DNA of 64,000 nt, from contig NC_087384.1 of the NCBI RefSeq assembly GCF_963675165.1, forward strand, positions 6,559,182-6,623,181. The letters are read 5' to 3'. The stretch comes from Halichondria panicea (Eukaryota; Porifera; Demospongiae; Suberitida; Halichondriidae). The translations under genes and the position numbers were made by a program. Shown here piece by piece: positions 5,835 through 64,000 of this stretch. Position 1 is the first letter of the stretch, and every line of letters starts with the position of its first letter. The notes under the pieces were generated by a model. It was not told the DNA's origin and searched no databases. It worked only from the letters and a program-made list of their open reading frames with translations.

Positions 5835-8712
5835 TCATGTACGGGTGGTGATGGTTTGAATAGTTTCGTAAGTGTTGTCATCCTCCCTCTGGAAGCTCAG
5901 CGGCTGGTACGCCCCCTCCTCCTGAGATGCCCCATCCCCTCCAAACGGCAGGAACTCGTACTGATCTTCCTCATCATTCTTCCTGATTGGCTCGTACTGT
6001 CCCTCTGAATTATTAGCCACGTCTGTCCCAGCGTCTCTTGTCTCAAAGGCCAGGTCTTGGTAGGCTGAGACTTCTTGTTCTTTGTAAGTCTTGGGGGGGA
6101 TCAATGGATGGTAGATCTTCTCATTGCTTTGCTGGCCAGGTTGAGTGATGGGTGGAGTAGCTATCAGCATCATTGGCTTCTTCTCTCGCTGTTTTTTGTT
6201 CATTGCAATCCCTCTCGAAGCAAGCATTGGTTTCTCATATCGTATATCCACCTCTTCTTTGTACACGTGTCTGTGTGATGTGTCGTTGTTTTGTGGAGCA
6301 CTTTTCAATGTACTGCTTTTCTCTTTGAGCTCTATACCTTCAGGAACATCGTACACTGGATCTGCAGTGCTGCAGTGAGTAAATCAAGACAGGCAATCGT
6401 ATTAACGTTATGAATACCACCCACATACACAGTGAAAAAGGTTACCTTTCAGGACTGTATGCACTCAATCAATACTAAAAATAATGGTGTTAAAGTTTGC
6501 AGTGGGTATTACCTTTGTTGACCTTGAGGAGTCACTTGTTTACTTCTCCTCTTGTAACAACAGCAACAGGAAATGCATGTTATTACAATTCCCAAAAGTA
6601 GCAACACTGCTAGCAGTGCTCCAGCAGATACAACTGTCACCAGGTTACTCCCAGTTTGTGTTAACGTTGATAAAGGTAGTTCTATAGTAGAAAAAAGTTA
6701 TAATAAAAATACCCGTTACATTGTCAATGCACGTTTATCTACTCCTGACAGTACCTATGGCTGTCACAACAATGATACATTGATGTAGTCCAACGCCCAC
6801 TGAGTTCCCTGCTGAAACACAGCAACTGTAGTTGGTATTGGCAATAAGACCAAACACTTCCACAGAGGTATTGTATGCTCGTTGTATCTCCACGTCGTGG
6901 TGTGCTGATGTGCAGTGGATACTGTAGAACAGGATAGCTTGTCCATAGCTCTCAGCTGGCTCTGTCCAAGTCAGCCTGATGCCGTTAGTGTAGGCCGAAA
7001 CTGTAGCAACTTCTTGTGGTTCAGTAGGAGAACCTGTATGAAAGATCAATAGCTTGTTCATGCTGTATCAACATACCTCGCTCTGTCCTTGCATCCACAC
7101 AAGTTTTATTTCCTTCACCAGCTTCATTAGTAGCAGAGATGCAGCAAGTGTAGTTGGTCAATTCTCGGAGGTTGCTCACAGTTTCTAGTCCGTCAGCAGT
7201 GGTATTCAAGCTCACAATAGTTCCATCAGCTGGCAGGCATGTAATCGTGTAGTGGGAGATGATACCACCATTGATAGGTTGTGGTCTAGACCACTCTAGT
7301 TGAATGGACTTGTATGTGATGTCAGTGATGTTGACCAAAAGAGGTGTAGTAGGGAGACCTGAATGGGTGCTAGCATACATTACGACAATTGAAATCATAC
7401 CTGGAGGAGTAGTCGCATTCACGCAACTTGGGACACTACGATACCAGGCAACATTCACTGTGACACAGCATTCGTATCTTGTGAACACACTCAGTCCAGT
7501 CAAGTTAACAGCAGTTTCTGTGATGCTGTATATACGTCTAGAGCTGACCCAAGGTCTAGTCTGTGTCCCACACACCACATAATATTCACCGTATCGTTCA
7601 TAGATTTGTTTTGGCTCCAGCCACTCAATTAGCAGTGACGTTTGTCCTGAAGGCTTGACTGTCACGTTTCTTGGAGGGCTGGGGGTAGCTGTAATTTAAT
7701 AATAATAAAAAGGAATCTCACAAGAAATAAAGAGCACTCACGTCCATACACATAGCTAGCAGGACCTACTCCAGCACTGTTGTTACCAGAAACACGGCAA
7801 TAGAAGATGCAAGAATTGAAATTATCATCATCATAAGGATCATGGAATGTCACATTTGATGAATGACTTGGAGTCTCTTCCATGAAATAATAAGACCTAT
7901 AACATGATATATAGTCAGAACAGATAATCCTGTATCCATCCACATCGGTACAGTTGCCCATGTCTGGAGGTAACCAGGACACTTGAATGGAGGAAGAGTT
8001 AATGAAAGTGATCTCCACATTTGTTGGCCTTTTAGGGGCTAATACATGGAAATTATTATGATGAGATTTGGGTTCATGGATGTATATTGACTTACTTGAA
8101 TAACAAGACACTCCGGCCCCAACGTCGCTGCCACAGTTACTTGAATACCTAGTCACAGAACACCCGCTCAGTGTAGCTTCATCTCCAGTGCAGTCGACTT
8201 CATTGATACGTCTTGGAATATAGTCCTGATAACTCTGACCTGTTACAAAGCGTCCTAGAATGGAAAAACGGCAAGAGATTTTACGATCTATTGCAGTTGT
8301 AAATTTATACAACATACAAATCTATAGCGTATCAATGCAACCTACCATCATGCCAACATACCTCCTTGCTGACAAAATCCCAGTTCTCGACACACCACTC
8401 GAGTCTCTTCAATCCCCCAGTTGTCTTGACACGGAGTGTACCAATATCTACCGTCACAAATATCCACTCTCCCCTCTCTAGAGCTTGGTCCGTCTGCTAA
8501 CCTGATCTCTCCTTCTACGGAACATCTAGTATGACCTCCTCTGTGATAGCAATGCAATCGTATCTGTACAAGATATCTAGAGAGTTATTTATTCTTGCAT
8601 ATCTAGATATAGATACAAATTACAAAGCATAAAAGAGTCAGGCTTACTTCACTTGACAGATACCAGCTACGAGCAAGATTGAAATTGTGTAAAGTTGCTG
8701 TCTCTTAGCCAT
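5835..8712 (-). CDS. R1: class B receptor, SRCR + 4 FN3 + TM + multi-YxxL tail
   Basis: Minus-strand exons: signal peptide 8648-8712 (MAKRQQLYTISILLVAG), SRCR halves 8362-8525 and about 8097-8255, FN3 7742-8038, 7401-7688, 7077-7358 and 6755-7033, TM 6513-6681, tail 5835-6369. The SRCR has the GEIRLADG start and CRELGFCQQGG and CTGDEATLSGC blocks. The FN3 exons checked join in phase 1. The TM is followed by CCCCYKRR, a likely palmitoylated stop-transfer. The tail has YDVP and six Yxx(L/I) motifs; one usual YEPL is YEFL here. No break was seen. A secreted scavenger-like ectodomain signalling through SH2 proteins is inferred from the motifs; the ligand is unknown. Confidence 0.85.
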
Positions 8713-8890
8713 AGTTGATGATTCCTTGTGTTGCAAGGTTTGTAACTTCGTTTTTATGAGGATATGGATTGTTTACTATACTTAGCTCAGAGCATGAATA
8801 TCATTAAGTTCCACCGTATACGGGTACATGGGTGGGGCTGACTTCTGTCTGCTAGTTCATGTAAGCCAATAACTATGCAACCAATAAACT
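8713..8890 (-). promoter_or_regulatory. R1 upstream region
   Basis: This shares with the R2, R8 and R10 upstream regions an AGAGCATGAAT-like stretch and a GGTGGGGCTGAC box (plus-strand spelling, about 8830-8842). R1 is class B while those three are class A, so the promoter block has been exchanged between classes. Regulatory function is inferred from conservation only. Confidence 0.4.
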
Positions 8891-8935
8891 GTGCACAAAA
8901 CACACAAAGTTAAGAGTTTAGTACAAGTCATAGTT

Positions 8936-9070
8936 CATTTCTCATGTACGGGTGGTGGTGGTTTGAATAGTTTCGTAAGTGTTGTCATCCTGCGTCTGGA
9001 AGCTCAGTGGTTGGTACGCCCCCTCCTCCTGAGATACCCCACCCCCTCCAAACGACAGAAACTCGTACTA
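8936..9070 (-). pseudogene. Truncated receptor tail-exon relic
   Basis: The last 45 or so codons of a type-1 tail (final YETI and YQPL motifs plus the glycine run) are recognisable on the minus strand. They break off at the YEPL-equivalent and run into the shared upstream block beginning near 9075. No TM or ectodomain accompanies it. It is the 3' stump of a deleted receptor between R2 and R1. Confidence 0.8.
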
Positions 9071-9074
9071 CTTA

Positions 9075-9380
9075 TAGACCGATCATTGTATTGTATGTGT
9101 ACATAATATCGTAAAAACATCAAACATAATTATATAGTTTCACAAGCTCGTCTTGAAGCCCCTCCTTAAGATACACCACCTCCAAATTACAGTGGCTCAT
9201 ACTGCCCTTTTCTGGCAGTTTCTGTATACTGATCCTCGAAGCCTTTATTTTGATAACGTACTTCTCTAGTGTGGTATGATCTAGTTACTTGCAGGGGATA
9301 GAGAATATTGTGGACATATTATAGTCCCAGGTTTTATAGTGTAAGTCAGATACACCCACTAATCAATAAAGCACATACAT
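9075..9380 (-). pseudogene. Shared upstream block with older tail-exon scrap (copy 1)
   Basis: This block recurs upstream of R3 (17190-17495), R9 (39940-40150), R11 (47960-48255) and R13 (55625-55945). It holds a degenerate YEPLSFGGG-like tail piece (about 9130-9235 here) and ends with an ACACCCACTAATCAATAAA stretch. The piece is non-coding now. Conservation of the whole block may reflect duplication or a retained promoter function; the sequence cannot separate these. Confidence 0.6.
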
Positions 9381-9577: not shown

Positions 9578-12500
9578 TCATGTACGGGTGGTGGTAGTTT
9601 CGTAAGTGTTGTCGTCCTCCCTCTGGAAGCTCAGTGGTTGGTATGCCCCCTCCTCCTGAGATGCCCCACCCCCTCCAAACGACAGGGGCTCGTACTGATC
9701 GTCCTCATCATTCTTCTTGATTGGCTCGTACTGTCCCTCTGAATTATTAGCCACGTCTGTCCCAGCGTCTCTTATCTCAAAGGCCAGGTCTTGATAGGCC
9801 GAGACTTCTTGTTGTTCTTTGTAAGTCTTGGGAGGGATCAATGGCTGGTAGATCTTCTCACTGCTTTGCTGGCCAGATTGAATGATGGGTGGAGTAGCTA
9901 TCGGCATCATTGGCTTCTTCTCTCTCTGTTTTTTGTTCGTTGCAATCCCTCTCGAAGCAAGCACAGGTTTCTCATATCGTATATCCACCTCTTCTTTGTA
10001 CACGTGTCTGTGTGATGTTGTGTCGTTGTTTTGTGGATCACTTCTCAACGTACTGCCTTTCTCTTTGAGCTCTATATCTTCAGGAACATCGTACACTGGA
10101 TCTGCAGTGCTGCAGCAAGTACAAGCAATTACATTGTTATGGATACCGTTGGAGTACATCAATGGGAATGAAAAAGGTTACCTTTCAGTACTATATAGGA
10201 CTGTATACACAATCAAAAATAATGGTGGAACACTGTGTTTGTAAGCGGGTATTACCTTTGTTGACCTTGAAGAGTCACTTGTTTGCTCGTTCTTCTCTTG
10301 TAACAACAACAACAGGTTATGCATGTTATCACAATACACAGAAGTAGCAACACTGCTAGCAGTACTCCAGCAGACACAGCTGTCACTAGGTTACTGCCAG
10401 ATTGTGGTTGTTCTGTATAGTGAATAATAACTATAATATCCTTTCAATGCATATACATATCGTACCAGTACTTATAGCAGTCATGACAACGATACATTGA
10501 TGTAGTCCAACGGCCACCACTGAGTTCCCTGCTGCTGAAACACAGCAAGTGTAGTTGGTGTTGGCATTAAGACCAGACACTTCCACAGAGGTATTGTATG
10601 CTCGTTGTATCTCTGCATCGTGGTGTGCTGATGTGCAGTTGATACTGTAGAACAGGATAGCTTGTCCATAGCTCTCAGCTGGCTCAGTCCAAGTCAGCGT
10701 GATGCTGGTGGTATTGGAAATCACGTTAAGGTCTTCTGGTTCAGTTGGAGGAGCTGTGTTATTGTGCATGCATGCATGGCAATTGCAATTGACATAATCC
10801 TAATAATACACTAAAAAGGTATCTGTTCATGCAGCACATACCTGCATTTGTTTATGCATCAGAGCATGCGCTTCTTCCTTCACCAGCTTGATTAGTAGCT
10901 GAGTATAGCCTCGATTCAAGGCCGATTAAAATACAGCCTGGTACCTATTGCAGGGGTGATAGTGCGCATGCGCTTCAAATTACCCAGAATATGGGTAATC
11001 GTACTACGAACGTAAAACCTTAGTAAATTACACAGGAAATTAGTCCGTTTACTAAAAATATGTTCCGTAATACTTTATCTCTACGACTGAGTTCTGTAAA
11101 GCTGTGGCTTATACCGTCTATTGCGTTGGTCTAGAAGGCTTGAACACTAGTTTTAAGACAGAAGAGGCTCTCATCTACGTCTAGGATGGTCCTATAGCCG
11201 GGTTGTCTTCGCAAGTAGCAGTTTGAGGCACCATACACTTCCCATAGCCTGTACAGATCCAAGGTAAGACATCCTGACCATACAACCGTCATAGAGGTAG
11301 ATGAGAGCCTCTTCTGGCTTCAGACTAGTATAAAAGCCTTCTGGAACAACGCAATAGAGAGCTAAGCTGATGCACAAAGATAGAAAATAGATGAGAGAAA
11401 GAAAAAGGGGATTCCCCAGATTCTGGAGAATAAACTAACGCATGCGCACTATCACCCCTGCAATAGGTACCAGGCCGTATTTTAATCGGCCTGGAATCGA
11501 GGCTAGTAGCTGAGATACAACACGTGTAGTCAGTGAATGGTCGGAGGTTGCTCACATCCACACTACTGTTAACAGTTGTGCTGATCCAGACATTGTTGAG
11601 GTTCTGTATGCATGTTATCTGGTAGTACAGTAGTGTTCCATAAATGTGTAACGGTTTTGACCATTCCAGTTTAAAGGATGTGCTGGTTATTTTAGTTATA
11701 CCAACATCAACTGGCTTCATTGATGGTGCTGTATGGAGCATTACCAATTAAGTATTATTTAAAAGCACACACACACACACACAGTCGTCACCTGATAAAG
11801 TAGAGATATTCAGTTCTTTTGAGCATTCACTTTCCTGATTTAAGCCAACTGCTGTCACACAGCATCCATACTCTGTGTATGGTGGCAGTCCGGTGACTGT
11901 AGCTGTGGTACTTGATGTAGTTACAGTATGCACAGCTGGTAGATGAGAGCAATAGGGACAGCTGGTGTGATAGCAGTACACATTGAAATGGTTCACTTCA
12001 TCACTGTGTGTATTTGTCCAACTTAGCTGAAGTGACATCTGAAATACTTGGGTGACTATCAGCTGTGTGGGACTGCTAGCAAGTGCCCCTATTTCATCAC
12101 CTGTGTAACGAATGTGGGATTATAAATGGTTATGAGATGTCAGTATACACGTACACAATATACTCAACATCTACTTGATAGACAAACAGCCCAGGTCTTC
12201 CCACATTGGACAAACTCTCCATGTACTGTGTAGCACCAGTCAGTCCACCAGGTACAGTGAATGATCTGTTCCCATCTCCTGCATTAAACCCAATCTGCGC
12301 ATGTGGACCCCACTGAATCCTTGAATACAACAAGCAAACATATGACTTCTGGCCATCAGTCATTAGAACCACCTGATACGTGTTGCTAGGTCCATTCAAT
12401 CCATTTCGCGGAACTTGATTCCATGTTGCAATAAAAATCGATATAGGATTGATATTTGGAGATAAAAGAAAGCGTGCCAATGTCATTGTTTGACTTTCCC

Positions 12501-13378
12501 TGCTGCTTACTTCACGGTAGAAGATTTGGCCTCTACTTGTAATATCGGTATCACTCCAAAAGAGCAAAATAAGTGGCACAGTGTTGTTAATTGGTAGAGG
12601 TTGTTGAGAATATTCTATATATGCAGACCGAAACGATAAAAGTCCATGGGTGACCACCTATTGTAAAAAATTAAGCTTGAAGAACCTAAAGCTACTTCAA
12701 ACTCCACATGCAGTAGAAGTTAGTTGTACATTGTTTAATTAAATATTCACTTACGAAAATAGTAGATTCTTCAGATCCAAAAAATGGGAAGTTTTGAGTT
12801 AGATTTATTGGACCAGAAGAAGTATCAAGCATAGAGGGTACTCGGAGATCACCAACACTCTCTCCATAAGGTAGCAAGCTGACTGGGGCTGGACAGAACA
12901 TGCATTGGACGTTTATGCACATGGTGGAATTCCCATTTAAAGAACAATTTGAACTGTTTTCAATATCACAGCTAGTTAGGTTAGCCTCGTGCCCTGAGCA
13001 TTGAAACTTGAATCGATGTTCAGGGCAAAGACTTCCCGCCTCTGCATGTCCTACTCCACAACCATTCTGCCGACAAGCCACTGCAGCTGTTTGGTTAATG
13101 GAATCTCCATCCTCATCATCGCAGACTCCATTCCATCTCCCGGCAACACACACCTCCATAGTACCCTGGTAGGCACCTACCACATTTACTAGTCTGATCT
13201 CACCATGGCTACAAGATCTGTTAGGGATAATTAAATATATTGTAATACCCAAAAAGAGTATAGACAATTAATGTGTAACTACATTTCAGTATCTAAATGT
13301 TACTTACTTAATTTGACGAATAATAAAGAGCAAGGTTAAAGCTAATGTAATGCAGTAAAATAGCACACTTTTAGCCAT
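9578..13378 (-). pseudogene. R2: class A receptor (SRCR-NIDO-3 FN3-TM-tail), disrupted by a transposon
   Basis: Exons: signal peptide about 13306-13378 (MAKSVLFYCITLALTLLF), one exon for SRCR plus NIDO N-part 12755-13218, NIDO C-part about 12166-12658, FN3 about 11792-12101, a second FN3 split between about 11515-11730 and 10843-10903, third FN3 about 10467-10754, TM about 10258-10416, tail 9578-10114. The NIDO domain shows FPFFGSEES, LFWSDTDI, TWNQVP, VVLMTDGQ, IGFNAGDG and SNVGRPGLFVYQVD. A 602-bp inverted-repeat element sits inside the middle FN3 exon and would add stops, so I call it a pseudogene unless the element is spliced out. All other exons are open, so the damage is recent. Confidence 0.82.
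10904..11505. mobile_element. Non-autonomous inverted-repeat transposon inside the R2 FN3 exon
   Basis: Terminal inverted repeats of about 66 bp (about 10906-10971 and 11440-11505, only a few mismatches) begin TAGCCTCGATT. A second, inner inverted repeat (TCTATTGCGTT near 11117 against AACGCAATAGA near 11346) makes a long nested palindrome. The flanks carry a 9-bp direct repeat, GTAGCTGAG, at 10895-10903 and 11506-11514; uninterrupted paralogues have one copy. Long TIRs with a 9-bp duplication fit the Mutator-like superfamily. No transposase ORF is present. Confidence 0.88.
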
Positions 13379-13648: not shown

Positions 13649-16600
13649 TCAGTTTTCATTTACGGGCGGTTGAATAGTTTCGTAAGTGTTGTCGTCCTCC
13701 CTCTGGAAGCTCAGTTGGTATGCCCCTTCCTGAGATGTCCCACCCCCTCCAAATGACAGCAACTCGTACTGATTGTCCTCATCGTTATTCCTGATGGGCT
13801 CGTACTGTCCCTCTGAATTATTAGCCACGTCTGTCCCAGCGTCTCTTGTTGCAAAGGCCAGGTCTTGGTAGGCTGAGACTTCTTGTTTTTTGTAAGTCTT
13901 GGGGGGGATCAATGGTTGGTAGATCTTCTCACTATTTTGCTGCCCAGGTTGAGTGATGGGTGGAGTAGCTATCGGCATCATTGGCTTCTTCTCTCTCTGT
14001 TTTTTGTTTGCTGAATTCTCATATCGTATATCCACCTCTTCTTTGTACTGCACATGTCTGTGTGATGTGTTGTTGCTTTGTGGACTGCCTTTCTCTTTGA
14101 GCTCTATATCTTCAGGAACATCGTACACAGGATCTACAGTGCTGCAGCAAGTACATTAAGACAGGCAATCATTCATGATGTTATGGATACCACTATAGCT
14201 ATGGAAATACCTACATGCAAACAGTTTGAAAGAGTTGCCTTTCAGTACTAGGACTATAATTATCAGTAGAGTACCTTTGTTGACCTTGAAGAGTCACTTG
14301 TTTGCTTGTTCTCCTCTTGTAACAACAACAACAGGTTATGCATGTTATCACAAGAGCCAGGACTACCAGAAATGCTGATAGTGCTCCAGCCGACAAAGCA
14401 ATTACAAAGTTGATTTGACTGCTGGAAACTTGGAGATCAGCTAGATCTATATAGCATTATAGATATTATCAGGAGCCCATAAATAAGAGAAGGAGCGGCT
14501 GACTACGGGGATCACGTTACGTAAGTGGTTATGACCGCATTTCCATATATGCAGAGTCACTTAAGTGGTTGAATCCCTACACGTGTTATACACAATACAG
14601 GGCTGCGGTTTGCAAGAACTTAGTCGCTTCCAAACAAGGAAGTGCAGTTTCACCGGCAATTACGAGACGTGATCCCCGAGTATACGTTGAAGTTAGCCGC
14701 TCCTTCTCTTATTTATGGGCTCCTGATATTATTTTGGCTACCATTACACCAATACAATCTTTCCATCCAGATCCTACAAATTCTACACACCCTATTAAGC
14801 ACCTGTTCTTGCATCAGAGCATGCGCTTCTTCCTTCACCAGCTTGATTAGTAGCTGAGATACAACACGTGTAGTTAGTGAATGGTTGGAGGTTGCTCACA
14901 TCCACACTACTGTTCAAGGTTGTGCTGAGCCAGACATTGTTGAGGTTCTGTAAGCATCTTATCTGGTAGTACAGTAGTGTTCCATCTATATGCAATGGTC
15001 TTGACCATTCCAGTTTAAAGGATATGCTTGTTATTTCATTGATACCAACATCAACTGGCCTTGTTGGTGGTACTGTAAGGATCGAGACACATCAAGAGTA
15101 AGTACATTTTAACACACACTGAGTCAGTCACCTGGTAATAATAAAGTAGAGATATTCAGTTCTTCTGAGCAGTTACTTTCCTGGTTTAAGTTAACTGCTG
15201 TCACACAACATCCATACTCTGTGTATGGTGTCATCCCGGTGACTGTAGCTGTGGTACTTGATGTAGTTACAGTGTGCACAGCTGGTAGATGAGAGCAATA
15301 GGGACAGCTGGTGTGATAGCAGTACACATTGAAATGATTCACTTCATCATCGTGTGTATTTGTCCAACGTAGCTGAAGTGACATCTGAAATACTTGGGTG
15401 ACTATCAGCTGTGTGGGACTGCTAGCAGGTGCCCCTATTTCATCACCTGTGTAATATACGGTTATGCATGAGATGCATATATACACATAATATATTTACC
15501 ATCTACTTGATACACAAACAGCCCAGGTCTTCCCACATTTGACAAACTCTCCATGTGCAGTGTAGCACCAGTCAGTCCACCAGGTACAGTGAATGATCTG
15601 TTCCCATCTCCTGCATTGAACCCGATCTGTGCGCCTGGCCCCCATTGGATATCTTCGTATAAAAAGCAAGCAAAAGAATCCTGTCCATTCGTCATCAGAA
15701 CTACTTGAAATGTATTCTGTTGATGCATACCACTAGAGCAAGGGTACAGATAAACTTGATGCCATGTAGCGATAAATATGGATGTTGGGAAGAACCTAGT
15801 TTCTCTGTATACGTAGTCGTTCACCAGTAGGCTCGCTTGGTAGGATCCGGACCCATTTACTGCTCTATAGTAAATTTCACCACTACCGTTGCAACTTATA
15901 TGGATATCTCTCAAGAAAGGTATAATCAGTGGTGTCACATCAGTAAATGGTAGGGGTCTTGGACTATAGTATATGTATCCTTCATGAAAAGACAAAACTC
16001 CGTTCGTGTTTACCTATATATTATAAAAGTTCAATTAACAATGAGTTAACATTTTGGGAACTTACAAATAGCTTGCTCTGATTTTCTCCAAAGAATGGAA
16101 ACGGTTGTATCACAACTGCCTCAGACGAACCATCATCTAGCATAGGCACTTGCTGATCATAATCCGGACTTCCATAAGCCAATAAATCTGTTAAACAGAT
16201 ACACAATTATTAAGATATTAGGGATCAACTGAAATAGTTTTAATTTGTATACCTAATTGTGCCTGACATGAAGTGCACAGAGTGACAATGCACATATCTT
16301 CTCCTGTTGAGCAGTCAGCACCATCCAAAATAGAACAACCAGTTAAATTTGACTCTCCTCCTCTGCATTGAAACTTGAGTGTACTGTTGTGACATTGTCT
16401 TTGATTGTCTACGTATCCTAATATAAGTATACACTATAGTTATCATTTGCAACCAGCTTCTTAGCAAGAAATAGTTTTAGTTGTTTGCTTTACTCACCAT
16501 GTCCACAGCCCAGCTGTTTGCACACTATTGCAGCTGCTTGGTTCATAGCGGATATGTCAGCACAGACTCCACTCCATCTCCCAGCAACACACACCTCGGG

Positions 16601-16840
16601 AGTTCCATTGAAAGCACCTGTAACTTCCACCAATCGGATCTCTCCGTGGCTGCAGGACCTACATAACGTTTTAGTAAGCTTAAGATACTATGATGTAGAC
16701 TCTAAACATAGTCTATGTAGCTATATGGTAATTTGGTACACATTGTAGCATGTATGATCAACTTACTTCACTGGACCACAAACAAATAAGAGGAATGTTG
16801 TAATTGTGAGGATGAAGCAGAGCAGCAGACTTTTAGCCAT
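13649..16840 (-). CDS. R3: class A receptor, SRCR (two exons)-NIDO-2 FN3-TM-tail
   Basis: Exons: signal peptide about 16766-16840 (MAKSLLLCFILTITTFLLF; an in-frame ATG two codons upstream, at 16846, is possible), SRCR about 16497-16658 and 16250-16424, NIDO about 16067-16188 and 15500-16016, FN3 about 15132-15447 and 14810-15075, TM about 14276-14440, tail 13649-14143. The SRCR is split by an intron after CKQLGCGH, unlike R2, R8 and R10. The tail lacks part of the membrane-proximal segment but keeps YDVP, YQPL, YQDL, YEPI and YETI; one YEPL is YELL and the last YQPL is reduced to YQL. The FN3-TM intron carries an inverted-repeat element. All exons are open. Confidence 0.84.
14462..14734. mobile_element. 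Palindromic MITE in the R3 FN3-TM intron (copy 1)
   Basis: The ends are long inverted repeats: AGGAGCCCATAAATAAGAGA near 14471 and its complement near 14704-14723, continuing through GGAGCGGCT and GGGGATCACGT. There is no ORF of its own. Copies occupy the same intron position in R10, R11 and R13, while R9 has the empty site (about 37575-37592). One insertion in an ancestor, followed by duplication, explains the pattern. Confidence 0.85.
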
Positions 16841-20924: not shown

Positions 20925-21062
20925 ACTGGTAAGTGTTCTCCTTTTGCTTCCTCACCAATGCTTGATAGTGGCATTACTGCACTGCTCGTTAAAGTCTGTC
21001 CAAGACTAATACATATAGATTTAGATATCGGCTGATAATCGCTGGGCTCTTCACGCTTCATC
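20925..21062 (-). pseudogene. Type-2 tail-exon relic, C-terminal part
   Basis: Minus-strand sequence matches the C-terminal part of the R15 tail (KREEPSDYQPIS and HYQALVRKQ-like blocks) with internal losses. It lies 3' of the R5 type-1 tail, while the N-terminal start of the same tail type survives at 22340-22423 on the other side. A shred of SRCR exon (GAAACTTGAATC on the plus strand, about 21085-21128) follows, as also at 51872-51925. Confidence 0.75.
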
Positions 21063-21256
21063 ACTACACTAAAATAATGTCCTGAAACTTGAATCAGTGT
21101 TCAGAATAGAGAGGCTTCATATCCTACTCATATTAATACAGCAATCAGAAATATGGCATGTTTACATGTACATTGACTAAAAAAACATTGTACATTGAGT
21201 AAAAAATAGACATAACAAAGCATGACAGGAAGCAATACATATAACAATCATTCAGT
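21063..21256. other. R5 3' flank with SRCR shred
   Basis: This contains a fragment of a class A SRCR exon (about 21085-21128), then sequence shared with the flanks at 5680-5780 and 32040-32160 (GGCATGTTTACAT-like and GAGTAAAAAA stretches). No gene. Confidence 0.5.
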
Positions 21257-46887: not shown

Positions 46888-47534
46888 GTTAAACAGATAT
46901 ACAAGATATTAGGGATCAACTGAAATAGTTCTTTGTATACCTAATTGTGCCTGACATGCAGTGCACTGAGTGACAATGCACATATCTTCTCCTGTTGAGC
47001 AGTCAGCACCATCCAAAATAGAACAACCAGTTAAATTTGACTCTCCTCCTCTGCATTGAAACTTGAGTGTACTGTTGTGACATTGTCTTTGATTGTCTAC
47101 GTATCCTAATATAAGTATACACTATAGTTATTATTTGCAACCAGCTTCTTAGCAAGAAATAGTTTTAGTAGTTTGCTTTACTCACCATGTCCACAGCCCA
47201 GCTGTTTGCACACTATTGCAGCTGCTTGGTTCATAGCGGATATGTCAACACAGACTCCACTCCATCTCCCAGCAACACACACCTCGGGAGTCCCATTGAA
47301 AGCACCTGTAACTTCCACCAATCGGATCTCTCCGTGGCTGCAGGACCTACATAACGTTTTAGTAAGCTTAAGATACTATGATGTAGACTCTAAACATAGT
47401 CTATGTAGCTATATGGTAATTTGGTACACATTGTAGCATGTATGATCAACTTAATTCACTGGACAACAAACAAATAAGAGGAATGTTGTAATTGTGAGGA
47501 TGAAGCAGAGCAACAGACTTTTAGCCATAGGCAT

Positions 47535-51400: not shown

Positions 51401-51480
51401 ACTACTGGACAGCAAGCAAATAGTATGACTATGAGGAAGGTTGTAACTGTAATACAGCAAGGCAGCACCCTCCCAGCCAT
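48458..51480 (-). CDS. R12: class B receptor, SRCR + 4 FN3 + TM + tail
   Basis: Exons: signal peptide about 51398-51480, SRCR about 51090-51265 and 50798-50962, FN3 about 50444-50742, 50101-50391, 49764-50043 and 49436-49720, TM about 49178-49337, tail 48458-48998. The ectodomain is closest to R1 (the LLIEWLEPKQIYERYGEYYV stretch is shared), while the tail is closest to R14. The tail carries YEVP, YQPL, YQDL, YEPI, YEPL, YQPL and YETI. A perfect inverted duplication of the last FN3 exon end lies in the FN3-TM intron. No break in coding sequence was seen. Confidence 0.86.
49361..49467. repeat. Perfect 46-bp inverted repeat at the R12 FN3-TM junction
   Basis: Arms 49361-49406 and 49422-49467 are exact complements with a 15-bp spacer. 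The right arm contains the last bases of the FN3 exon and its splice donor, so the left arm is a back-copied exon end inside the intron. A transcript could fold over the donor. Confidence 0.93.
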
Positions 51481-51666: not shown

Positions 51667-51859
51667 TTATTACTGTGTCTCCATACAATGTCAATGACTG
51701 GTAAGGGTTCTCCTCCTGCTTCCTCACCAATGCTTGATAGTGGCCCTCCTCTGAGGTACTCTCTGACTGCACTACTGCACTGCTCGTTAAAGTTTGTCCA
51801 GGACCACTAATGCACGTAGATATCGGCTGATAATCGCTGGGCTCTTCACGCTTCATCAC
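51667..51859 (-). pseudogene. Type-2 tail-exon relic between R13 and R12
   Basis: Open on the minus strand for 65 codons (KREEPSDYQPIS, then HYQALVRKQEENPYQSL, ending in a stop). It is the C-terminal part of an R15-like tail with two of its YxxL/I pairs. It lies 3' of the complete type-1 tail of R13 and has no TM. A short SRCR shred (51872-51925) follows. Confidence 0.8.
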
Positions 51860-52076
51860 TACACTATAATTATGTCCTGAAACTTGAATCAGTGTTCAGA
51901 ACAGAGCGGCTTCATATCCTACTCATATTATTATGTATTACTACAGTAATCAGAAATATGGCATGTTTACATGTACACTGAGTAAAAAAAACATTCCGAG
52001 TAGATCATAACAAAGCATGACAGGAAGCAATACATATAACATAACAGTCATGCAATTCTTATGTACAAAGAGTCAT

Positions 52077-55000
52077 TCAATTCTCATGTACGGGCGGTTG
52101 AATAGTTTCATAAGGGTTGTCGTCCTCCCTCTGGAAGCTCAGTGGTTGGTACGCCCCTTCCTGAGATGTCCCACCCCCTCCAAATGACAGCAACTCGTAC
52201 TGATTGTCCTCATCGTTATTCCTGATGGGCTCGTACTGTCCCTCTGAATTATTAGCCATGTCTGTCCCAGCGTCTCTTGTTGCAAAGGCCAGGTCTTGGT
52301 AGGCTGAGACTTCTTGTTTTTTGTAAGTCTTGGGGGGGATCAATGGTTGGTAGATCTTCTCACTATTTTGCTGCCCAGGTTGAGTGATGGGTGGAGTAGC
52401 TATCGGCATCATTGGCTTCTTCTCTCTCTGTTTTTTGTTTGCTGAATTCTCATATCGTATATCCACCTCTTCTTTGTACTGCACATGTCTGTGTGATGTG
52501 TTGTTGCTTTGTGGACTGCCTTTCTCTTTGAGCTCTATATCTTCAGGAACATCGTACACAGGATCTACAGTGCTGCAGCAAGTACATTAAGACAGGCAAT
52601 CATTCATGATGTTATGGATACCACTATAGCTATGGAAATACCTACATGCAAACAGTTTGAAAGAGTTGCCTTTCAGTACTAGGATTATAATTATCAGTAG
52701 TACCTTTGTTGACCTTGAAGAGTCACTTGTTTGCTTGTTCTTCTCTTGTAACAACAACAACAGGTTATGCATGTTATCACAAGAGCCAGGACTACCAGAA
52801 ATGCTGATAGTGCTCCAGCCGACAAAGCAATTACAAAGTTGATTTGACTGCTGGAAACTTGGAGATCAGCTAGATCTATATAGCATTAGATATTATCAGG
52901 AGCCCATAAATAAGAGAAGGAGCGGCTGACTACGGGGATCACGTTACGTAAGTGGTTACGACCGCATTTCCATATATGCAGATCACTTAAGTGGTTGAAT
53001 CCCTACACGTGTTATACACAATACAGGGCTGCGGTTTGCAAGCACTTAGTCGCTTCCAAACAAGGAAGTGCGGTTTCACCGGCAATTACGAGACATGATC
53101 CCCGAGTATACGTTGAAATTAGCCGCTCCTTCTCTTATTTATGGGCTCCTGATATTATTTTGGCTACTATTACACCAATACAATCTTTCCACCCAGATCC
53201 TACAAATTCTACACACCCTATTAAGCACCTGTTCTTGCATCAGAGCACGCGCTTCTTCCTTCACCAGCTTGATTAGTAGCTGAGATACAACACGTGTAGT
53301 TAGTGAATGGTTGGAGGTTGCTCACATCCACACTACTGTTCATGGTTGTGCTGAGCCAGACATTGTTGAGGTTCTGTAAGCATGTTATCTGGTAGTACAG
53401 TAGTGTTCCATCAATGTGTAATGGTCTAGACCATTCCAGTTTAAATGATGTGCTGGTTGTTTCAGTGATACCAACATCAACTGGCCTTGTTGGTGGTACT
53501 GTAAGGAGACACATCAAGCTAGAGTAAGTACATTTTAACACACAGTCAGTTACCTGGTATTAATAAAGTAGATATATTCAGTTCTTCTGAGCAGTCGCTT
53601 TCCTGGTTTAAGTAAACTGCTGTCACACAACATTCATACTCTGTGTATGGTGTCAGTCCGGTGACCGTAGCTATGGTACTTGATGTAGTTACAGTGTGCA
53701 CAGCTGGTAGATGAGAGCAATAGGGACAGCTGGTGTGATAGCAGTACACATTGAAATGGTCCACTCCATCACTGTGTGTATTTGTCCAACGTAGCTGAAG
53801 TGACATCTGAAATACTTGTGTGACTATCAGCTGTGTGGGACTGCTAGCAAGTGCCCCTATTTCATCACCTGTGTAACGAATGTGGGATTATAAATGGTTA
53901 TGAGATGTCAGTATACACGTACACAATATACTTACCGTCTACTTGATACACAAACAGCCCGGGTCTTCCCACATTGGACAAACTCTCCATGTACAGTGTA
54001 GCACCAGTCAGTCCACCAGGTACAGTGAATGATCTGTTCCCATCTCCTGCATTGAATCCAATCTGTGCGCCTGGCCCCCATTGAATATCTTCATATAAAA
54101 AGCAAGCAAAAGAATCTTGTCCATTCGTCATCAAAACTACTTGAAATGTATTCTGTTGATGCATTGCATTATAGCAATTGAAAGGATAAACTTGATGCCA
54201 TGTAGCGATAAATATGGATGTTGGAAAGAACCTAGTTTCTCTGTATACGTAGTCGTTCACCAGTAGGCTTGCTTGGTAGGATCCGGACACATTTACTGCT
54301 CTATAGTAAATTTCACCGCTACCGTTACAACTTATATGGATATCTCTCCAGAAAGGTATAATCAGTGGTGTCACACCAGTAAATGGTAGGGGTCTTGGAC
54401 TGAAGGATCTGTATCCTTCATGAAAAGACAAAACTCCATTCGTGTTTACCTATAATATTTTTAAAAGTTCAATTAACAATGAGTTAACATTTTGGGAACT
54501 TACAAATAGCTCGCTCTGATTTTCTCCAAAGAATGGAAACGGTTGTATCACAACTGCCTCAGACGAACCATCATCTAGCATAGGCACTTGCTGATCACGA
54601 TCATCACCACTTCCATAAGCCAATAAATCTGTTAAACAGATATATACATGCAAGATATTAGGGATCAACTGAAATAGTTCTTCTTAGTACCTAATTGTGC
54701 CTGACATGAAGTGCACTGAGTGACAATACACATATCTTCTCCTGTTGAGCAGTCAGCACCATTCAAAATAGAACAACCAGTTAAATTTGACTCTCCTCCT
54801 CTGCATTGAAACTTGAGTGTACTGTTGTGACATTGTCTTTGATCGTCTACGTATCCTATACACTATAGTTATTATTTGCAACCAGCTTCTTAGCAAGAAA
54901 TAGTTTTAGTTGTTTGCTTTACTCACCATGTCCACAGCCCAGCTGTTTGCACACTATTGCAGCTGCTTGGTTCATAGCAGACATGTCAGCACAGACTCCA

Positions 55001-55268
55001 CTCCATCTCCCAGCAACACACACCTCGGGAGTCCCATTGAAAGCACCTGTAACTTCCACCAATTGGATCTCTCCGTGGCTGCAGGACCTACATAACGTTT
55101 TAGTAAGCTTAAGATACTATGATGTAGACTCTAAACAAGTCTATGTAGCTATATGGTAATTTGGTACACATTGTAGCATGCATGATCAACTTACTTCACT
55201 GGACAACAAACAAATAAGAGGAATGTTGTAATTGTGAGGATGAAGCAGAGCAGCAGACTTTTAGCCAT
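52077..55268 (-). CDS. R13: class A receptor, SRCR (two exons)-NIDO-2 FN3-TM-tail
   Basis: Exons: signal peptide about 55195-55268 (an in-frame ATG at 55274 is possible), SRCR about 54928-55087 and 54690-54857, NIDO about 54505-54631 and 53937-54449, FN3 about 53553-53871 and 53230-53505, TM about 52705-52872, tail 52077-52575. The first intron donor, lost in R11, is intact here. The NIDO domain shows PFPFFGENQS, IIPFWRDI, IFIATWHQVY, VVLMTNGQ and IGFNAGDG. The tail ends PPVHEN with YELL in place of one YEPL. Open throughout. Confidence 0.85.
52888..53160. mobile_element. Palindromic MITE in R13 (copy 4)
   Basis: The same element and intron position as in R3, with nearly full arms. Confidence 0.85.
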
Positions 55269-55274
55269 AGGCAT

Positions 55275-55624
55275 ACTGATAGTGGTGGCCTTCTTTGTGT
55301 GTAGAGTTCAGATCTAAATTTGTAATTTGAACGGGAAGTGACCTTTTTAAAAGGCTTTTATTTACTATCTATGGCTTTATGTGGCTATGCATGTGACTGT
55401 AGTGGTAGACATGTAATTCCAGTACCTCCCTATTTAGCATAGTGATAATTATTCATAGCTTAATTGTACTGTGGTTTTGCTAGGGACAACTGTTGTGCAA
55501 ACACAGCACTGTACTGTCCTCAGGCTATATAGACCTCAGTACTAGTATACCTTTCACTTTGCTAAGATTACAACGACTTAGTAGATTTACAGCTGCGATA
55601 GGCCCTAGCTTGCCTAGACTGAGA
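55275..55624 (-). promoter_or_regulatory. R13 upstream region
   Basis: Nearly identical to the R3 upstream region, including the AATAAAAG stretch about 85 bp before the start. No gene. Confidence 0.4.
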
Positions 55625-55945
55625 CTGATCATTGTATTGTGCATGTGTACATGTACATAATATCTTAAAAACATCAAACATAATAAATTTATTATATAGT
55701 TTTGTCTCATCTTGAAGCCCCTCTTTAAGATACACCATGCACCACCTCCAAATGACAGTGGCTCGTATACTGCCCTTTCTGACAGTTTCTGCACTGATCC
55801 TTGAAGTTTATTTTGGTAACGTACTTCTAGCTCTATAGGGTGGTGATCTAGTTACTTGCAGGGGATAGAGAATATTGTAGACATAGCCCAAGTTTTATAG
55901 CATAAGTCAGATACACCCACTAATCAATAAAGCACATAATTATAA
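55625..55945 (-). pseudogene. Shared upstream block with tail-exon scrap (copy 5)
   Basis: The minus strand still reads AVYEPLSFGGGAW before diverging (about 55690-55790), the clearest proof that this block derives from a tail exon. It ends with the ACACCCACTAATCAATAAA stretch near 55913-55931. Confidence 0.65.
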
Positions 55946-56161: not shown

Positions 56162-59101
56162 TCATGTACGGGTGGTGGTGGTTTGAATAGTTTCGTAAGT
56201 GTTGTCGTCCTCCCTCTGGAAGCTCAGTGGTTGATACGCCCCCTCCTCCTGAGATGTCCCACCCCCTCCAAACGACAGGGGCTCGTACTGATCGTCCTCA
56301 TCATTCTTCCTGATTGGCTCGTACTGTCCCTCTGAATTATTAGCCACGTCTGTCCCAGCGTCTCTTGTCTCAAAGGCCAGGTCTTGGTAGGCTGAGACTT
56401 CTTGTTCTTTGTAAGTCTTGGGAGGGATCAATGGCTGGTAGATCTTCTCACTACTTTGCTGCCCAGGTTGAGTGATGGATGGACTAGCTATCAGCATCAT
56501 TGGCTTTTCCTCTTTTTGTTTTTTGTTCGTTGCAGTCCCTCCACTCGAAGCAAGCACTGGTTTCTCATATCTTATCTCCACCTCTTCTTTGTACACGTGT
56601 CTGCGTGATGTGTCGTTGTTTTGTGGACCACTTCTCAATGTACTACTGCCTTTCTCTTTGAGCTCTATATCTTCAGGAACATCGTACACTGGATCTGCAC
56701 TGCTGCAACAAGTATAAGCAATTGGATACCATCAGGAGTACATTAATGGAAATAAAAAACGTTACCTTTCAGTCTATAGGACTGTATACACAATCAAAAA
56801 TAATGGTGGATCAGTGTTTGCAATGGGTATTACCTTTGTTGACCTTGTTTGCTCGTTTTTCTCTTGTAACAACAACAACAGGTTATGCATGTTATCACAA
56901 TACACAGAAGTAGCAACACTGCTAGCAGTACTCCAGCAGACACAGCTGTCACCAGCTGGTTGCTGTCAGTTTGTGGTTGTTGTGGTTGTTCTGTATAGTG
57001 AATAATAACTATAATATCCTTTCAATGCATTACATATCGTACCAGTATATACTAGCAGTTTGGCTGTCATGACAATAATACATTGATGGAGTCCAACGCC
57101 CACAGAGTTCCCTGCTGAAACACAGCAAGTGTAGTTGGTGTTGGCATCAAGAACAGACACATTCACAGAGGTAATGTATGCTCGTTGTATCTCCACATTG
57201 TGGTGTGTTGATGTGCAGTTGATACTGTAGAACAGGATAGCTTGTCCATAGCTCTCAGCTGGCTCTGTCCAAGTCAGCGTGATGCCGTTAGTGTAGGCCG
57301 AAACTATGGCAACTAATTCTTGTGGTTCAGTAGGAGAACCTGTATAGAAAAATAAATTAGCTTGTTCACACTGTGTCAACATGCCTCGCTCTGTCCTTGC
57401 ATCCACACAAGTGTTATTTCCTTTGCCAACTTGATTAGTGGCAGAGATGCAGCAAGTGTAGTTGGTCAATGGTCGGAGGTTGCTCACAGTCTCTAGTCCA
57501 TCAGCAGTGGTATTCAACCTCACAATAGTTCCATTAGCTTGCAGGCATGTAATGGTGTAGTGGGAGATGATGCCATTGATGGGTTGAGGTCTGGACCACT
57601 TCAGTTGAATGGACTTATATGTGATGCCAGGGATGTTGAGAGCCAGGGGGGCAGTAGGGAGATCTGTATCATACATTCTTTATTGTCTATTACCCATTTA
57701 CACATTTGGTACCTTATAAGACTATATATACTAGGTACATGTACCTGCAGCAGTAGTAGCATTAACACAGCTTGGCGAACTGCTGAAGGTAGTATAATCA
57801 TAATAGTTAAATGCTTGTGCTGTGACACAGCATTCGTATCTTGTGAACACACTCAGTCCAGTCATGTTAACAGCTGTTTCTGTGATGCTGTATATATTTC
57901 TGGTATTGTTTCCACATACCACTGAGTATAGATCAAAGTCGCCATTGATTTGTTCTGGTTCTATCCATTCTATTTGTAGCAAAGTTGGTTGGATCGATGA
58001 AACTGTCACATTTCTTGGAGGGGTAGGACGGGCTATAATTATAGTGAGACAAAAATTAAGTATAATTATATCGATCATGAAAACTCACGTTTTAAAGCAC
58101 ACTCTTGAGGACTTTCTCCAGCACTGTTGCTGCCTGAAACACAGCAGGTGTAGTTGCAACGATAAAAATAATAATCATGTAGGAATGTAGTTATTGAAGT
58201 TGTCTGTCGAGTATTTGTGTAAGAACACGGGTAAGAAAAATTACAGCTTATCCTGTACTCATCAATATCAGTGCAGTTGCTCATGTCTGGAGGTGACCAG
58301 GTCAATTGAATGGAGAACAGGTCAATTACTTCGATTTCCATGTTTGTTGGTTTGTGTGGGACTGAAAAGAAGAATTAGTCAGTGGTCCATACTTCAATCA
58401 ATAGCAAGAGTAGATAAAAGTACTCTTATCTCTACTCTTGTCAATAGCTATAATTATAGGTGTTAATAATTATTGGTGCTTGCAGGATCATTATAGCTAT
58501 GATTGTGACTAACTTTGAGCATGACAAGCCACTCCAGCCGACCGATAATTGTCACAGTAATCTAATGTGTTCAGGGAACAGTTGCTCAGTGTAGCTTCAT
58601 TTCCAGTGCAGTTTACATGGAACTCGTTTATGGGATAATAGTACTCATCTGATACTGATCCTGTGCAACGGATTAGGGTAAGAGCTTTAAAATCGTTAGC
58701 GTAGGTTACAGCTTCAAGTTAAATTGACTTATTATTTAAGCAAACCTCCTTGCTGGCAAAACCCCAGTTGTCGACACACCACTCGTGTCTCTTCAAGCCC
58801 CCATGTTTCTTGACAAGGGGTGTGCCGGCGTCCTTCCACACAAACCTCCACTCTCCCCTCTCTAGAGCTGGGTCCATTAACCAGTCGAACTGTTCCCTCT
58901 GGTTCATCGCAATGTGATGCCCTGATTGAAATATTGCAAAGAGGCTTATATAGAGATCTATAGTACATTGTACAAAGTTACTGGTTCAATTTATAGATCT
59001 AGCAAATAATTTGTGTCACTTTCAACTTACCTCACTGGACAGCAAGCAAATATAAACAAGATTGCAATTGTAATACAGTAAAGCAGTAGCCTCTCAGCCA
59101 T
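56162..59101 (-). CDS. R14: divergent class B receptor, SRCR + 4 FN3 + TM + tail
   Basis: Exons: signal peptide about 59031-59101 (MAERLLLYCITIAILFIF), SRCR about 58746-58921 and 58514-58664, FN3 about 58088-58362, 57748-58033, 57382-57663 and 57064-57342, TM about 56834-56991, tail 56162-56705. The SRCR (GTVRLVNGPSSREGRVEVC, CRQLGFCQQGG, CTGNEATLSNC) and the two distal FN3 are the most different among intact class B genes. The two membrane-proximal FN3 and the tail (YDVP, YEPI-x8-YEPL, YETI) are almost the same as R4 and R12. No break was seen. Confidence 0.86.
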
Positions 59102-62300: not shown

Positions 62301-62638
62301 GAGTCTCTTCAATCCCCCAGGTATCTTGACACGAAGTGTACCACACTGATTCAAAGCAAATGTTCACTCTCCCCTCTCTGGAGTTGGGTCCATCTGCTAA
62401 CCTAACCTCTCCTTCTCTTCCAAAGCAAAAGATTGCCCTGTAATGATGCAGATATGCAAAGCTGACGTAGACTACAGAAGGATTGATGGAGGATCGATCG
62501 TCTACTATTTACTTACTAGATCTACTAGACTAGGTAGCCTATGATTCCAGCTTACCTCACTACTGGACAGCAAGCAAATAGTATGACTATGAAGAAGGTT
62601 GTAATTGTAATACAGCAAGGCAGCACCCTCCCAGCCAT
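59316..62638 (-). pseudogene. R15: class B receptor with the full type-2, triple-ITAM tail, frameshifted
   Basis: Signal peptide about 62557-62638, SRCR about 62262-62425 and 61965-62130, FN3 about 61600-61890, 61262-61547, 60940-61207 and 60600-60868, TM about 60366-60538, tail 59316 to about 60246. The tail is twice the usual length and holds HYQPL-x8-YEMV, HYQPL-x8-YQTI and HYQAL-x8-YQSL, plus FNYQPT and KIYQPL upstream. Breaks: a 16-bp partial duplication in the second SRCR exon (about 62095-62117) brings a stop into frame; a 4-bp ATGC insertion near the end of the third FN3 exon (about 60943); and a frame change in the tail near 59690. The promoter is replaced by a palindrome junction. 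It is the only near-complete example of this tail here. Confidence 0.82.
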
Positions 62639-62709
62639 GGTTGTTGCTTTGTGGTAGATGTGTAACTTACACATCTACCACAAAGCAACAACCATGGCTG
62701 GGAGGGTGC
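62623..62709. repeat. Perfect 43-bp palindrome over the R15 start codon
   Basis: Arms 62623-62665 and 62667-62709 are exact complements around base 62666. The left arm is the R15 start region; the right arm is its mirror image, which places a copy of the start codon on the plus strand at 62694 and then joins directly to truncated R16. R15 thus keeps only 28 bp of its own upstream sequence. Confidence 0.95.
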
Positions 62710-62710
62710 C

Positions 62711-64000
62711 AGTTGCTAGGGCTACCCCACCTCAAAATAAATGAGGTAGGGCTCAGGTTTGTTGCAGACAGCCATGGTGGAGCACTAGGGGGAGCTGTGT
62801 AGACAAGAATTAAGGAAATATACTAGCCCTTTACACTCGGGGTTTGAAGGCTTACCTATGGTCACAGTGGTAGAACTGTTTAATTTGAGCTCCGACCAGC
62901 CACACTGTTAGCGCTCACATAGAAAGTGTATGTTGTGAGTGTCAAGCCATTGATTGTTAAACTTGTCGATGTAGTTTGCATTTCCTGGTTATTGTAGGAT
63001 ACCCGATATCCAGTTATATAGTAGTAGTTCGTTGATGGGTGTGACCACGATATTTGAACTGATTGTGGACTCTGAATAGTTCCCCGCACAGAATTAGGTC
63101 TACCTGGAACAGCTGCAGTGTGGAGAATAAGAGTTGGATTACTGACCTGATACAATGTAATCTCCTTACACAAAGAAGTGCATCTTGAAGAGCTACTTCC
63201 AGCACTGTTGTAGCTTCAGATGCAGCATCGATAGTTGCAGCTAGTAACATCAGCAGCAGAATAAATAGTGAAATTGGTTTGTATTAAACCAGGACACCCA
63301 GGAGCTGTACAGGTGACTCTATATAGCCATCGATATTTCTGCAGCTGCTTGTACTTGGATAAGACCACGTGAGACTAAATAAGATAGAACTGAGAATACT
63401 TATTGAAGGGTTTGATAGAGAATTTGGAGCTGTGCATAGAGTATGAAATGAATTTATGATTACAGCTCTGTATAGCATGGGAACATCTAGCTAGTGAAGA
63501 CTCACTATTAACATATCGACATCCAACACAACAGCTTGTGAGCATGAACCAATAAGGGACATAACACTGCAAGAACTCAGATCACTCTCATGTCCAGTAT
63601 ACAGTCAACTTCCTTGAAATAGCTAGAATTGTACGGAGTAGATGTGATATCTGCAAACATGTAATATTATAATAAAACCGCATTAATTAACCTATATAGT
63701 CTAACTGACAACTGGGTCCACAGTAATCCAATTGTCTGCATACAACATAAGCCAGGCCTATCGAGCGGGTACAAATGCTGTACCACGTCTCAGCTCCGTT
63801 GCATACCTCTACCCTCCCAGTTGTAGGCCAGGTGTTGTCTTTTAATCTGACGTCATTTATCGTACACCCTTTGCAACTTCTAAAAAAGAAACTATGCAAA
63901 CTCAACACGAAGACAGTACAATATGCTATAGATACACTGTAACTAAGTGCATTTTACCATTAACTTAATCACCGTTTCTCTACCACGCTGAAACTAGAAC
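62711..64000 (-). pseudogene. R16: truncated relative of R6, running off the window
   Basis: SRCR pieces (about 63695-63880 with INDVRLKDN, GRVEVC and CRQLDYC; about 63485-63650) are followed by FN3 exons about 63170-63425 and 62880-63110, then a scrap of the next FN3 (about 62740-62800) that matches R6 near 25660-25725 and stops at the palindrome. The FN3 at 62880-63110 runs into a stop after NSVAGRSSN, and frame breaks occur near 63240-63330. No TM or tail remains. The signal peptide would lie past 64000. Confidence 0.72.

What the first reader, a model, noticed from the sequence alone, without database searches (positions are those of the whole stretch)
5835..64000. Tandem array of SRCR/NIDO/FN3 receptors with ITAM-like tails
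Fifteen genes and pseudogenes (plus one relic) on one strand combine scavenger-receptor, NIDO and fibronectin-III ectodomains with one TM/tail module rich in YxxL/I motifs. SRCR and FN3 are common in animal surface proteins, and ITAM signalling is best known with immunoglobulin-type receptors; I do not know a described family with SRCR-NIDO-FN3 fused to multi-ITAM tails. If this is an early-branching animal, it is a candidate innate or allorecognition receptor locus.
Basis: partly seen in the sequence, partly recalled or inferred. Interest (0 to 1): 0.9.

Follow-up and report, generated by a model that had tools for sequence, protein, structure and literature searches.

The report
Sponge scavenger-receptor array with ITAM tails
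A breadcrumb sponge carries a tandem cluster of cell-surface receptor genes whose outer parts differ widely but whose inner tails are nearly the same and bear the tyrosine motif that vertebrate immune receptors use, which makes them candidate triggers for the sponge's Syk-type kinases.

Summary
The window lies in the breadcrumb sponge Halichondria panicea. The array is real. On the minus strand I model 13 receptor units: 7 of type A (SRCR-NIDO-FN3-TM-tail) and 6 of type B (SRCR-FN3x4-TM-tail). Nine read open, three are broken (u5, u7, u13), u1 is unresolved. NCBI's protein for u12 joins SRCR, NIDO, FN3, TM and tail.

The tails meet the strict ITAM consensus in 12 of 13 tail-1 copies (12 in the window, 1 beside it), and the diverged tail of u1 meets it twice. 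Motif tyrosines and their +3 residues hardly vary. The genome also encodes Src-family, Syk-like, Shark-like and SHP-like proteins. Between types A and B the SRCR is 31% identical, the tail 87%: variable ectodomains on a constant tail.

I read it as a lineage-specific family of ITAM-type activating receptors, probably for microbe or particle recognition. Expression, ligands and phosphorylation are untested. SRCR receptors with ITAM-like tails exist already (CD5), so this is a new variant of a known kind. Nothing here tests allorecognition.

The parts
5838..8712 (-). u14, type B: SP, SRCR (2 exons), 4 FN3, TM, tail-1 (tail exon about 5838-6369); no frameshift or stop; spliced by eye and used as template
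8945..9300 (-). relic tail-1 end 3' of u13, with stops
9581..13378 (-). u13, type A1, broken: altered donor after the NIDO exon, an internal stop, irregular FN3 region; tail-1 frame open
13652..16840 (-). u12, type A2: SP, SRCR, linker, NIDO, 2 FN3, TM, tail-1; identical over 761 aa to NCBI LOC135340507 isoform X2 (P0001)
17729..20641 (-). u11, type B, tail-1; no frameshift or stop
20942..21085 (-). relic of a tail-2 exon 3' of u10
21260..24756 (-). u10, type B, tail-1; a GC-AG intron between FN3c and FN3d, otherwise open
25401..26459 (-). FN3 exons (fragment unit; two of three ORFs over the Pfam cut-off), no TM or tail assigned
27839..28111 (-). fragment with SRCR-like and tail-3-like pieces (by eye; no Pfam match)
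32206..36475 (-). u8, type A1: SP 36405-36475, SRCR 35857-36319, NIDO 35305-35806, 5 FN3 33507-35245, TM 32869-33037, tail-1 32206-32746; open; spliced by eye and used as template
36774..39677 (-). u7, type A2, broken by a frameshift near 38956; tail-1 frame open but the acidic -3 residue of the ITAM is lost
40393..43585 (-). u6, type A1 with 2 FN3, tail-1; no frameshift or stop; exon(s) just before TM uncertain in my model
43892..47528 (-). u5, type A2, broken by a frameshift at the start of the second FN3 (near 45257); tail exon 43892-44381 open and used in NCBI's P0004 behind the u4 ectodomain
48461..51480 (-). u4, type B, tail-1; no frameshift or stop
51668..51874 (-). relic of a tail-2 exon 3' of u3
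52080..55268 (-). u3, type A2, tail-1; no frameshift or stop
55528..55851 (-). relic of a tail 3' of u2 (contains one YEPL)
56165..59101 (-). u2, type B with the most diverged ectodomain, tail-1; one GC-AG intron that my aligner reads through; NCBI P0005
59319..62638 (-). u1, type B ectodomain with tail-2 (two strict ITAMs in the model); intactness unresolved
62883..63215 (-). FN3 exon, probably of the next upstream unit

Best explanation
The array encodes type I membrane receptors of one lineage-specific family. Shown from sequence: signal peptide, SRCR, optional NIDO, two to five FN3, one uncharged TM with a CCCC juxtamembrane cluster, and a tail of 163-180 residues with a canonical ITAM (ExxYEPI-x8-YEPL in most copies) plus further YxxL/I motifs. 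Inferred: the ectodomain binds a microbial, particulate or matrix ligand; clustering lets a Src-family kinase phosphorylate the tail; the paired phosphotyrosines dock the tandem SH2 domains of the sponge's Syk-like or Shark-like kinase; this drives phagocytosis or activation, and an SHP-type phosphatase ends it. The locus keeps one signalling tail nearly uniform, by purifying selection and possibly exon-confined gene conversion, while the N-terminal ligand-binding parts diverge: many inputs, one output.
For: Architecture by Pfam on spliced models and on NCBI's P0001. Strict ITAM in 12 of 13 tail-1 copies and two in u1's diverged tail-2; pairs at 6-8 spacing also in the two other tail-2 units tested (2 and 3). 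Yxx[LI] excess over shuffled tails. In tail-1, motif Tyr and +3 columns average 0.08 non-consensus residues against 1.43 for the rest, permutation p 0.002; the four core ITAM columns have none in 13 copies. Tail dN/dS 0.21 (A2), 0.39 (A1), 0.41 (B), Z -3.6, -2.9, -3.0. Signalling kit in the same genome: Src-family SH2-kinase (E 9e-160 to Src), Syk-like second SH2 with inter-SH2 stretch (E 2e-39 to SYK), SH2-ankyrin-SH2-kinase exons as in Shark, SH2-SH2-phosphatase exons. SRCR 31% and tail 87% identical between types A and B (42 pairs each). Tail dS below N-terminal ectodomain dS in 15 of 15 B pairs, the two distances uncorrelated (Mantel r -0.16, p 0.62).
Against: No expression, phosphorylation or ligand evidence. 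YxxL/I is also the YxxPhi endocytosis signal (recalled). Other tail tyrosines, outside YxxL/I, are conserved too. In type B the tail's dN/dS (0.41) is no lower than that of FN3c and FN3d (0.40, 0.42), so its constraint is not special there. Mean ectodomain dN/dS is below 1 in nearly all segments; no positive selection shown. The dS gradient holds in type B but not in A2 (SRCR dS 0.04, tail 0.12), and in four B genes the intron before the tail and the 250 bases after it are not homogenised (identity 0.73 and 0.57). The upstream tail-3 has six Yxx[LI] but no pair at 6-8 spacing. A kinome study lists Syk as emerging in Chordata (PMC8662651, passages), against the Syk reading of C4. Paralogues are not independent; 3 of 13 units are broken. 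The AlphaFold model of P0001 is too poor (mean pLDDT 46) to support the SRCR or NIDO folds.
Confidence: 0.55

Rival explanations
1. Endocytic scavenger receptors: the repeated YxxL/I motifs are AP-2 sorting signals that carry food particles or matrix debris to lysosomes, without ITAM signalling.
For: Every ITAM half is also a YxxPhi signal (recalled consensus); SRCR receptors are often endocytic (recalled); sponges live by particle uptake. Five or six motifs per tail-1. Tail-3 has six motifs but no ITAM spacing.
Against: Paired spacing of 8 with an acidic residue at -3 recurs in 12 of 13 tail-1 copies and in the diverged tail-2; sorting needs neither. In the sampled C11 and C2 SRCR clusters four ORFs passed the motif-density threshold and I judged all four non-coding by eye.
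Confidence: 0.2
2. Adhesion or matrix receptors: NIDO and FN3 bind extracellular matrix or aggregation factor and the tyrosines recruit SH2 or PTB adaptors for adhesion control, with no immune role.
For: NIDO is shared with nidogen, mesh, SUSD2 and tectorin proteins; FN3 arrays resemble LAR/PTPRQ ectodomains, whence probably NCBI's names.
Against: Tandem amplification, diverged SRCR ends and broken copies fit recognition families better than single-function adhesion genes (inference); NCBI's phosphatase names are not backed by a phosphatase domain in the four proteins that bear them.
Confidence: 0.17
3. Allorecognition locus: the receptors distinguish self from non-self tissue.
For: Dense tandem array with diverged ectodomains and activating-type tails.
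Against: No polymorphism data; no segment with significant dN>dS apart from one 24-codon signal-peptide value with dS 0; no linked ligand was looked for.
Confidence: 0.05

Closest known systems
CD5 (group B SRCR lymphocyte receptor)
   Different: three SRCR (same paper), no NIDO or FN3 (recalled); first half of the motif is off consensus; inhibitory role; here an array
WC1 family of ruminant gamma-delta T cells
   Same: multigene SRCR co-receptor family, 13 genes in cattle, proposed as a pattern-recognition array (PMC3511184, abstract and passages)
   Different: several SRCR per protein, no NIDO or FN3; tail tyrosine signalling (all recalled); vertebrate lineage
Draper / CED-1 / MEGF10 engulfment receptors
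   Same: non-Ig receptor with its own tail ITAM signalling through Src kinase and Shark (PMC4503800, passages); Shark-like and SHP-like exons are in this genome
   Different: EMI and EGF-like ectodomain and longer ITAM spacing (recalled)
Sponge SRCR-FN3 proteins (Geodia cydonium multiadhesive protein; Stylissa and Amphimedon SRCR expansions)
   Same: SRCR combined with FN3 in sponges is known (PMC4772301, passages; Pahler 1998 seen only as a reference in PMC10855680)
   Different: no NIDO or ITAM in the passages I read
H. panicea SRCR transcripts (PMC8242945)
   Same: over 600 SRCR transcripts, some with FN3; the legend of its Figure 1 lists NIDO among the domains
   Different: no locus or tail analysis in the passages and the one section read; 'ITAM' occurs 0 times in its main text
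Nidogen / mesh / SUSD2 / tectorin
   Same: NIDO domain; 29-39% identity over the matched part for the named hits
   Different: by the Pfam column, P0001 alone of the hits has both SRCR and NIDO

Membership tests
SRCR superfamily (Pfam PF00530) | SRCR domain above the curated cut-off | tested here: met
   27.9, 33.5 and 57.8 bits against 26.1 in u8, u12, u14; weak in type A
ITAM receptor | [DE]xxYxx[LI]x(6-8)Yxx[LI] in a cytoplasmic tail | tested here: met
   12 of 13 tail-1 copies, two in u1; consensus recalled
ITAM receptor | tail follows a TM segment in the same reading frame | tested here: met
   phase-2 junction in 12 of 12 tail-1 units of the window and in NCBI P0001, P0003, P0005
ITAM receptor | dual phosphorylation by Src-family kinase and docking of a tandem-SH2 kinase | not testable with these tools
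   exons for both kinase types present; binding untested
CD5/CD6/WC1 SRCR receptors | ectodomain of several SRCR domains (recalled) | tested here: not met
   one SRCR stretch per unit, with FN3 and in type A NIDO (the two-unit fusion P0002 has two)
Draper/CED-1 family | EMI/EGF-like ectodomain (recalled) | tested here: not met
   no EGF or EMI match at E 0.001 in 3 models and 6 NCBI proteins
receptor tyrosine phosphatase (LAR/PTPRQ, NCBI names) | tyrosine phosphatase domain | tested here: not met
   no Y_phosphatase in P0002, P0004, P0005, P0026
allorecognition locus | extreme allelic polymorphism and control of fusion | not testable with these tools
   one assembly held

The most novel reading that the evidence does not exclude
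A sponge has its own ITAM receptor repertoire built on SRCR-NIDO-FN3 modules, in which one conserved signalling exon is shared among many diverged ectodomains and may even be exchanged by splicing across units (NCBI's u4-ectodomain to u5-tail model). It would be the receptor side that sponge Syk and Shark serve, showing that Src-ITAM-Syk recognition can be built without Ig-type receptors at the base of the animals.
Probability: 0.25. Interest if true: 0.85.

Novelty: new variant of a known kind. Interest (0 to 1): 0.62.

Why it matters
Syk-family kinases have been compiled from sponges to primates, with the Amphimedon sequence as outgroup (PMC9601881, passages; another study lists Syk as emerging in Chordata, PMC8662651, passages). 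I met no described sponge receptor with an ITAM in the listings of five paper searches (20 listed of 266, 1,031 and 101; 6 of 6 and 2 of 2). This locus supplies concrete candidates in a genome that also holds Src, Syk, Shark and SHP-type exons, in a sponge already used for phagocytosis work (PMC12345144, abstract start and one passage). It makes the question of what ITAM signalling did before lymphocytes directly testable.

Tried and rejected

Tail as a genome-wide sponge module: not seen at the sensitivity used; both tail searches hit only C8. In the sampled C11 and C2 SRCR clusters (15 pieces) four ORFs passed the density threshold and were judged non-coding by eye; loose YxxL pairs occurred 19 times and the strict pattern once in their ORFs. 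SRCR clusters on C3, C4, C5 and C16 were not read.

Apparent frameshifts in u10 and uO: rejected, they are GC-AG introns.

Wide conversion tracts: not supported, flanks of the tail exon are not homogenised in four B genes.

Rows dropped: the models u15, uP, u0 and u9 are forced alignments and were dropped; uP and uO of that call overlap. u1 was left out of the tail-1 and six-gene B counts and appears only in the three-gene B comparison. The piece called u1_tail2 was an upstream frame only and showed 1 motif and no pair; u1's ITAMs come from the model. In one search only the four nine-exon B genes (uO, u4, u11, u14) entered the exon and intron identities.

Structure: the AlphaFold job for P0001 (alignment of 13 proteins) came back after 13 earlier collecting calls. 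Mean pLDDT is 46 and most of the SRCR part is under 50; only a helix at 554-580, where the TM lies, and FN3-like strands near 460-540 are usable. I ran no fold search with it.
Full report
WHERE IT IS. Protein searches tie the window to Halichondria panicea: the best hits are NCBI proteins of that sponge on a contig of 7,091,591 bases, the length of contig C8 in which the window lies. The window is C8:6559182-6623181.

CHECKING THE GENES. I wrote a protein-to-genome aligner with splice sites and modelled each unit. It admits GT-AG introns only. The templates came from u8 and u14, spliced by eye, so those two models are circular. The second round also used NCBI's proteins as templates, so the final agreement of u12 with NCBI (761 aa) is not independent; but the first round, from the u8 template, already gave the same SRCR, NIDO, FN3 and tail for u12, differing just before the TM and at the last residues. 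In the window there are 13 units. Type A (SRCR-NIDO-FN3): u3, u5, u6, u7, u8, u12, u13; the Pfam NIDO model found the same 7 places in the window. Type B (SRCR-4 FN3): u1, u2, u4, u10, u11, u14. Nine show no frameshift or stop once GC-AG introns are allowed; u5, u7 and u13 are broken; u1 is unresolved. Pfam puts the domains above cut-off in the three models I gave it, 3 of 13 units. SRCR in type A is near the cut-off (27.9 and 33.5 against 26.1 bits).

EXTENT. The tail-1 search of the whole genome returned 15 rows: 13 tails (12 in the window, one outside), one partial, and one weak match to a tail-2 unit, all on C8. The tail-2 search returned 20 rows at E up to 1, all on C8. Further upstream lies a gene of many FN3 exons with a third tail. 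From the first tail-1 to the last tail-2 is about 83 kb.

TWO HISTORIES IN ONE GENE. Between types A and B the SRCR is 31% identical and the tail 87% (42 pairs each: 7 A by 6 B, uO included, u1 not). Among six type B genes, mean synonymous divergence is 0.36 in SRCR, 0.66, 0.42, 0.21 and 0.15 in the four FN3, 0.25 in the TM exon and 0.11 in the tail; tail dS is below N-terminal ectodomain dS in 15 of 15 pairs and the two distances are uncorrelated. Against a simple conversion story: type A2 shows no such gradient, and the intron before the tail and the sequence after it are not homogenised. Exon-confined conversion or synonymous constraint remain open.

THE SIGNALLING KIT. SH2 search of the genome: 71 matches. 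I read four regions. C2 has a Src-family kinase (SH2 and kinase in one frame, E 9e-160 to Src; its SH3 was not looked at). C4 has two SH2 matches; the second, with the stretch before it, matches SYK at 2e-39 and ZAP-70 next; only the start of a kinase domain, by eye, is in the piece I hold. C9 has SH2-ankyrin, ankyrin, SH2 and kinase exons, the layout of Shark; C3 has two SH2 and a tyrosine phosphatase, the layout of SHP/Corkscrew (8 of 10 ORFs matched; the names are recalled). Exons were not joined into full genes. In Drosophila the Src42A-Draper-Shark axis is an ITAM pathway and Corkscrew dampens it (PMC4503800, passages).

RELATIVES. Three protein searches: full u8 (11 hits), an alignment of three type A proteins (15 hits), and the TM-tail of P0003 (6 hits). 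By the Pfam column only P0001 combines SRCR with NIDO, and all 6 tail hits are from this contig. The search needs shared five-residue words, so distant relatives could be missed. NCBI's names LAR-like and PTPRQ-like rest on FN3; no phosphatase domain is present.

LITERATURE. SRCR expansion and SRCR-FN3 combinations in sponges are known (PMC10855680 and PMC4772301, passages; PMC8242945, passages and one section). PMC8242945's figure legend lists NIDO among its domains, so an SRCR-NIDO transcript may already have been drawn. The search for sponge with SRCR and ITAM returned 2 papers; in one I read passages, which describe no such receptor; the other I saw only in the listing. CD5 shows that an SRCR receptor with an x8-spaced pseudo-ITAM is not unprecedented (PMC5983667, passages). 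On the age of Syk the papers differ: PMC9601881 compiles it from sponges, PMC8662651 lists it as emerging in Chordata (passages).

STRUCTURE. The AlphaFold model of P0001 is poor (mean pLDDT 46). It shows a helix at 554-580 where the TM lies and low-confidence tails; it neither supports nor refutes the SRCR and NIDO folds.

VERDICT. The anatomy is solid; the ITAM reading is well supported by sequence and by the presence of its likely readers; the biological role is inferred. Immune or particle recognition is my preferred role, endocytosis and adhesion are live rivals, and allorecognition is unsupported. The corrections made on re-checking did not require a change of odds.

Noticed in passing
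window 43892-44381 and 49179-51480: NCBI protein P0004 joins u4's ectodomain and TM exons to the tail exon of the next unit u5, skipping u4's own tail; cross-unit splicing or an annotation artefact around the broken u5.
   Followed up: partly
window 17729-24756: NCBI protein P0002 fuses u10 (with TM) to u11, giving two TM segments; probably a read-through or a merged model.
   Followed up: partly
window 51668-51874, 20942-21085; C8:6633494-6633665: Partial tail-2 exons lie just 3' of three tail-1 genes (u3, u10, uO), as if tail-1 had been placed before an older tail-2.
   Followed up: partly
L019 8639-9511 and L035 882-8222: Next upstream gene: a long series of FN3-like ORFs with a third Tyr-rich tail; a candidate for the ancestral neighbour of the array.
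   Followed up: partly
window near 23090-23036 and 57393-57340; uO near 75900-75859: GC-AG introns between the third and fourth FN3 exons of u10, u2 and uO.
   Followed up: yes
window 33502-34525: Three FN3 exons of u8 form a 358-base tandem repeat, 86% matches.
   Followed up: no
G000 C11:1.99-2.08 Mb, C2:6.95-7.01 Mb: Other SRCR arrays with NIDO matches nearby; no convincing YxxL-dense tail among the ORFs scanned.
   Followed up: partly
window 649-1803, 2409-2777, 3047-3679: Plus-strand ORFs beyond the end of the array with no Pfam match.
   Followed up: no
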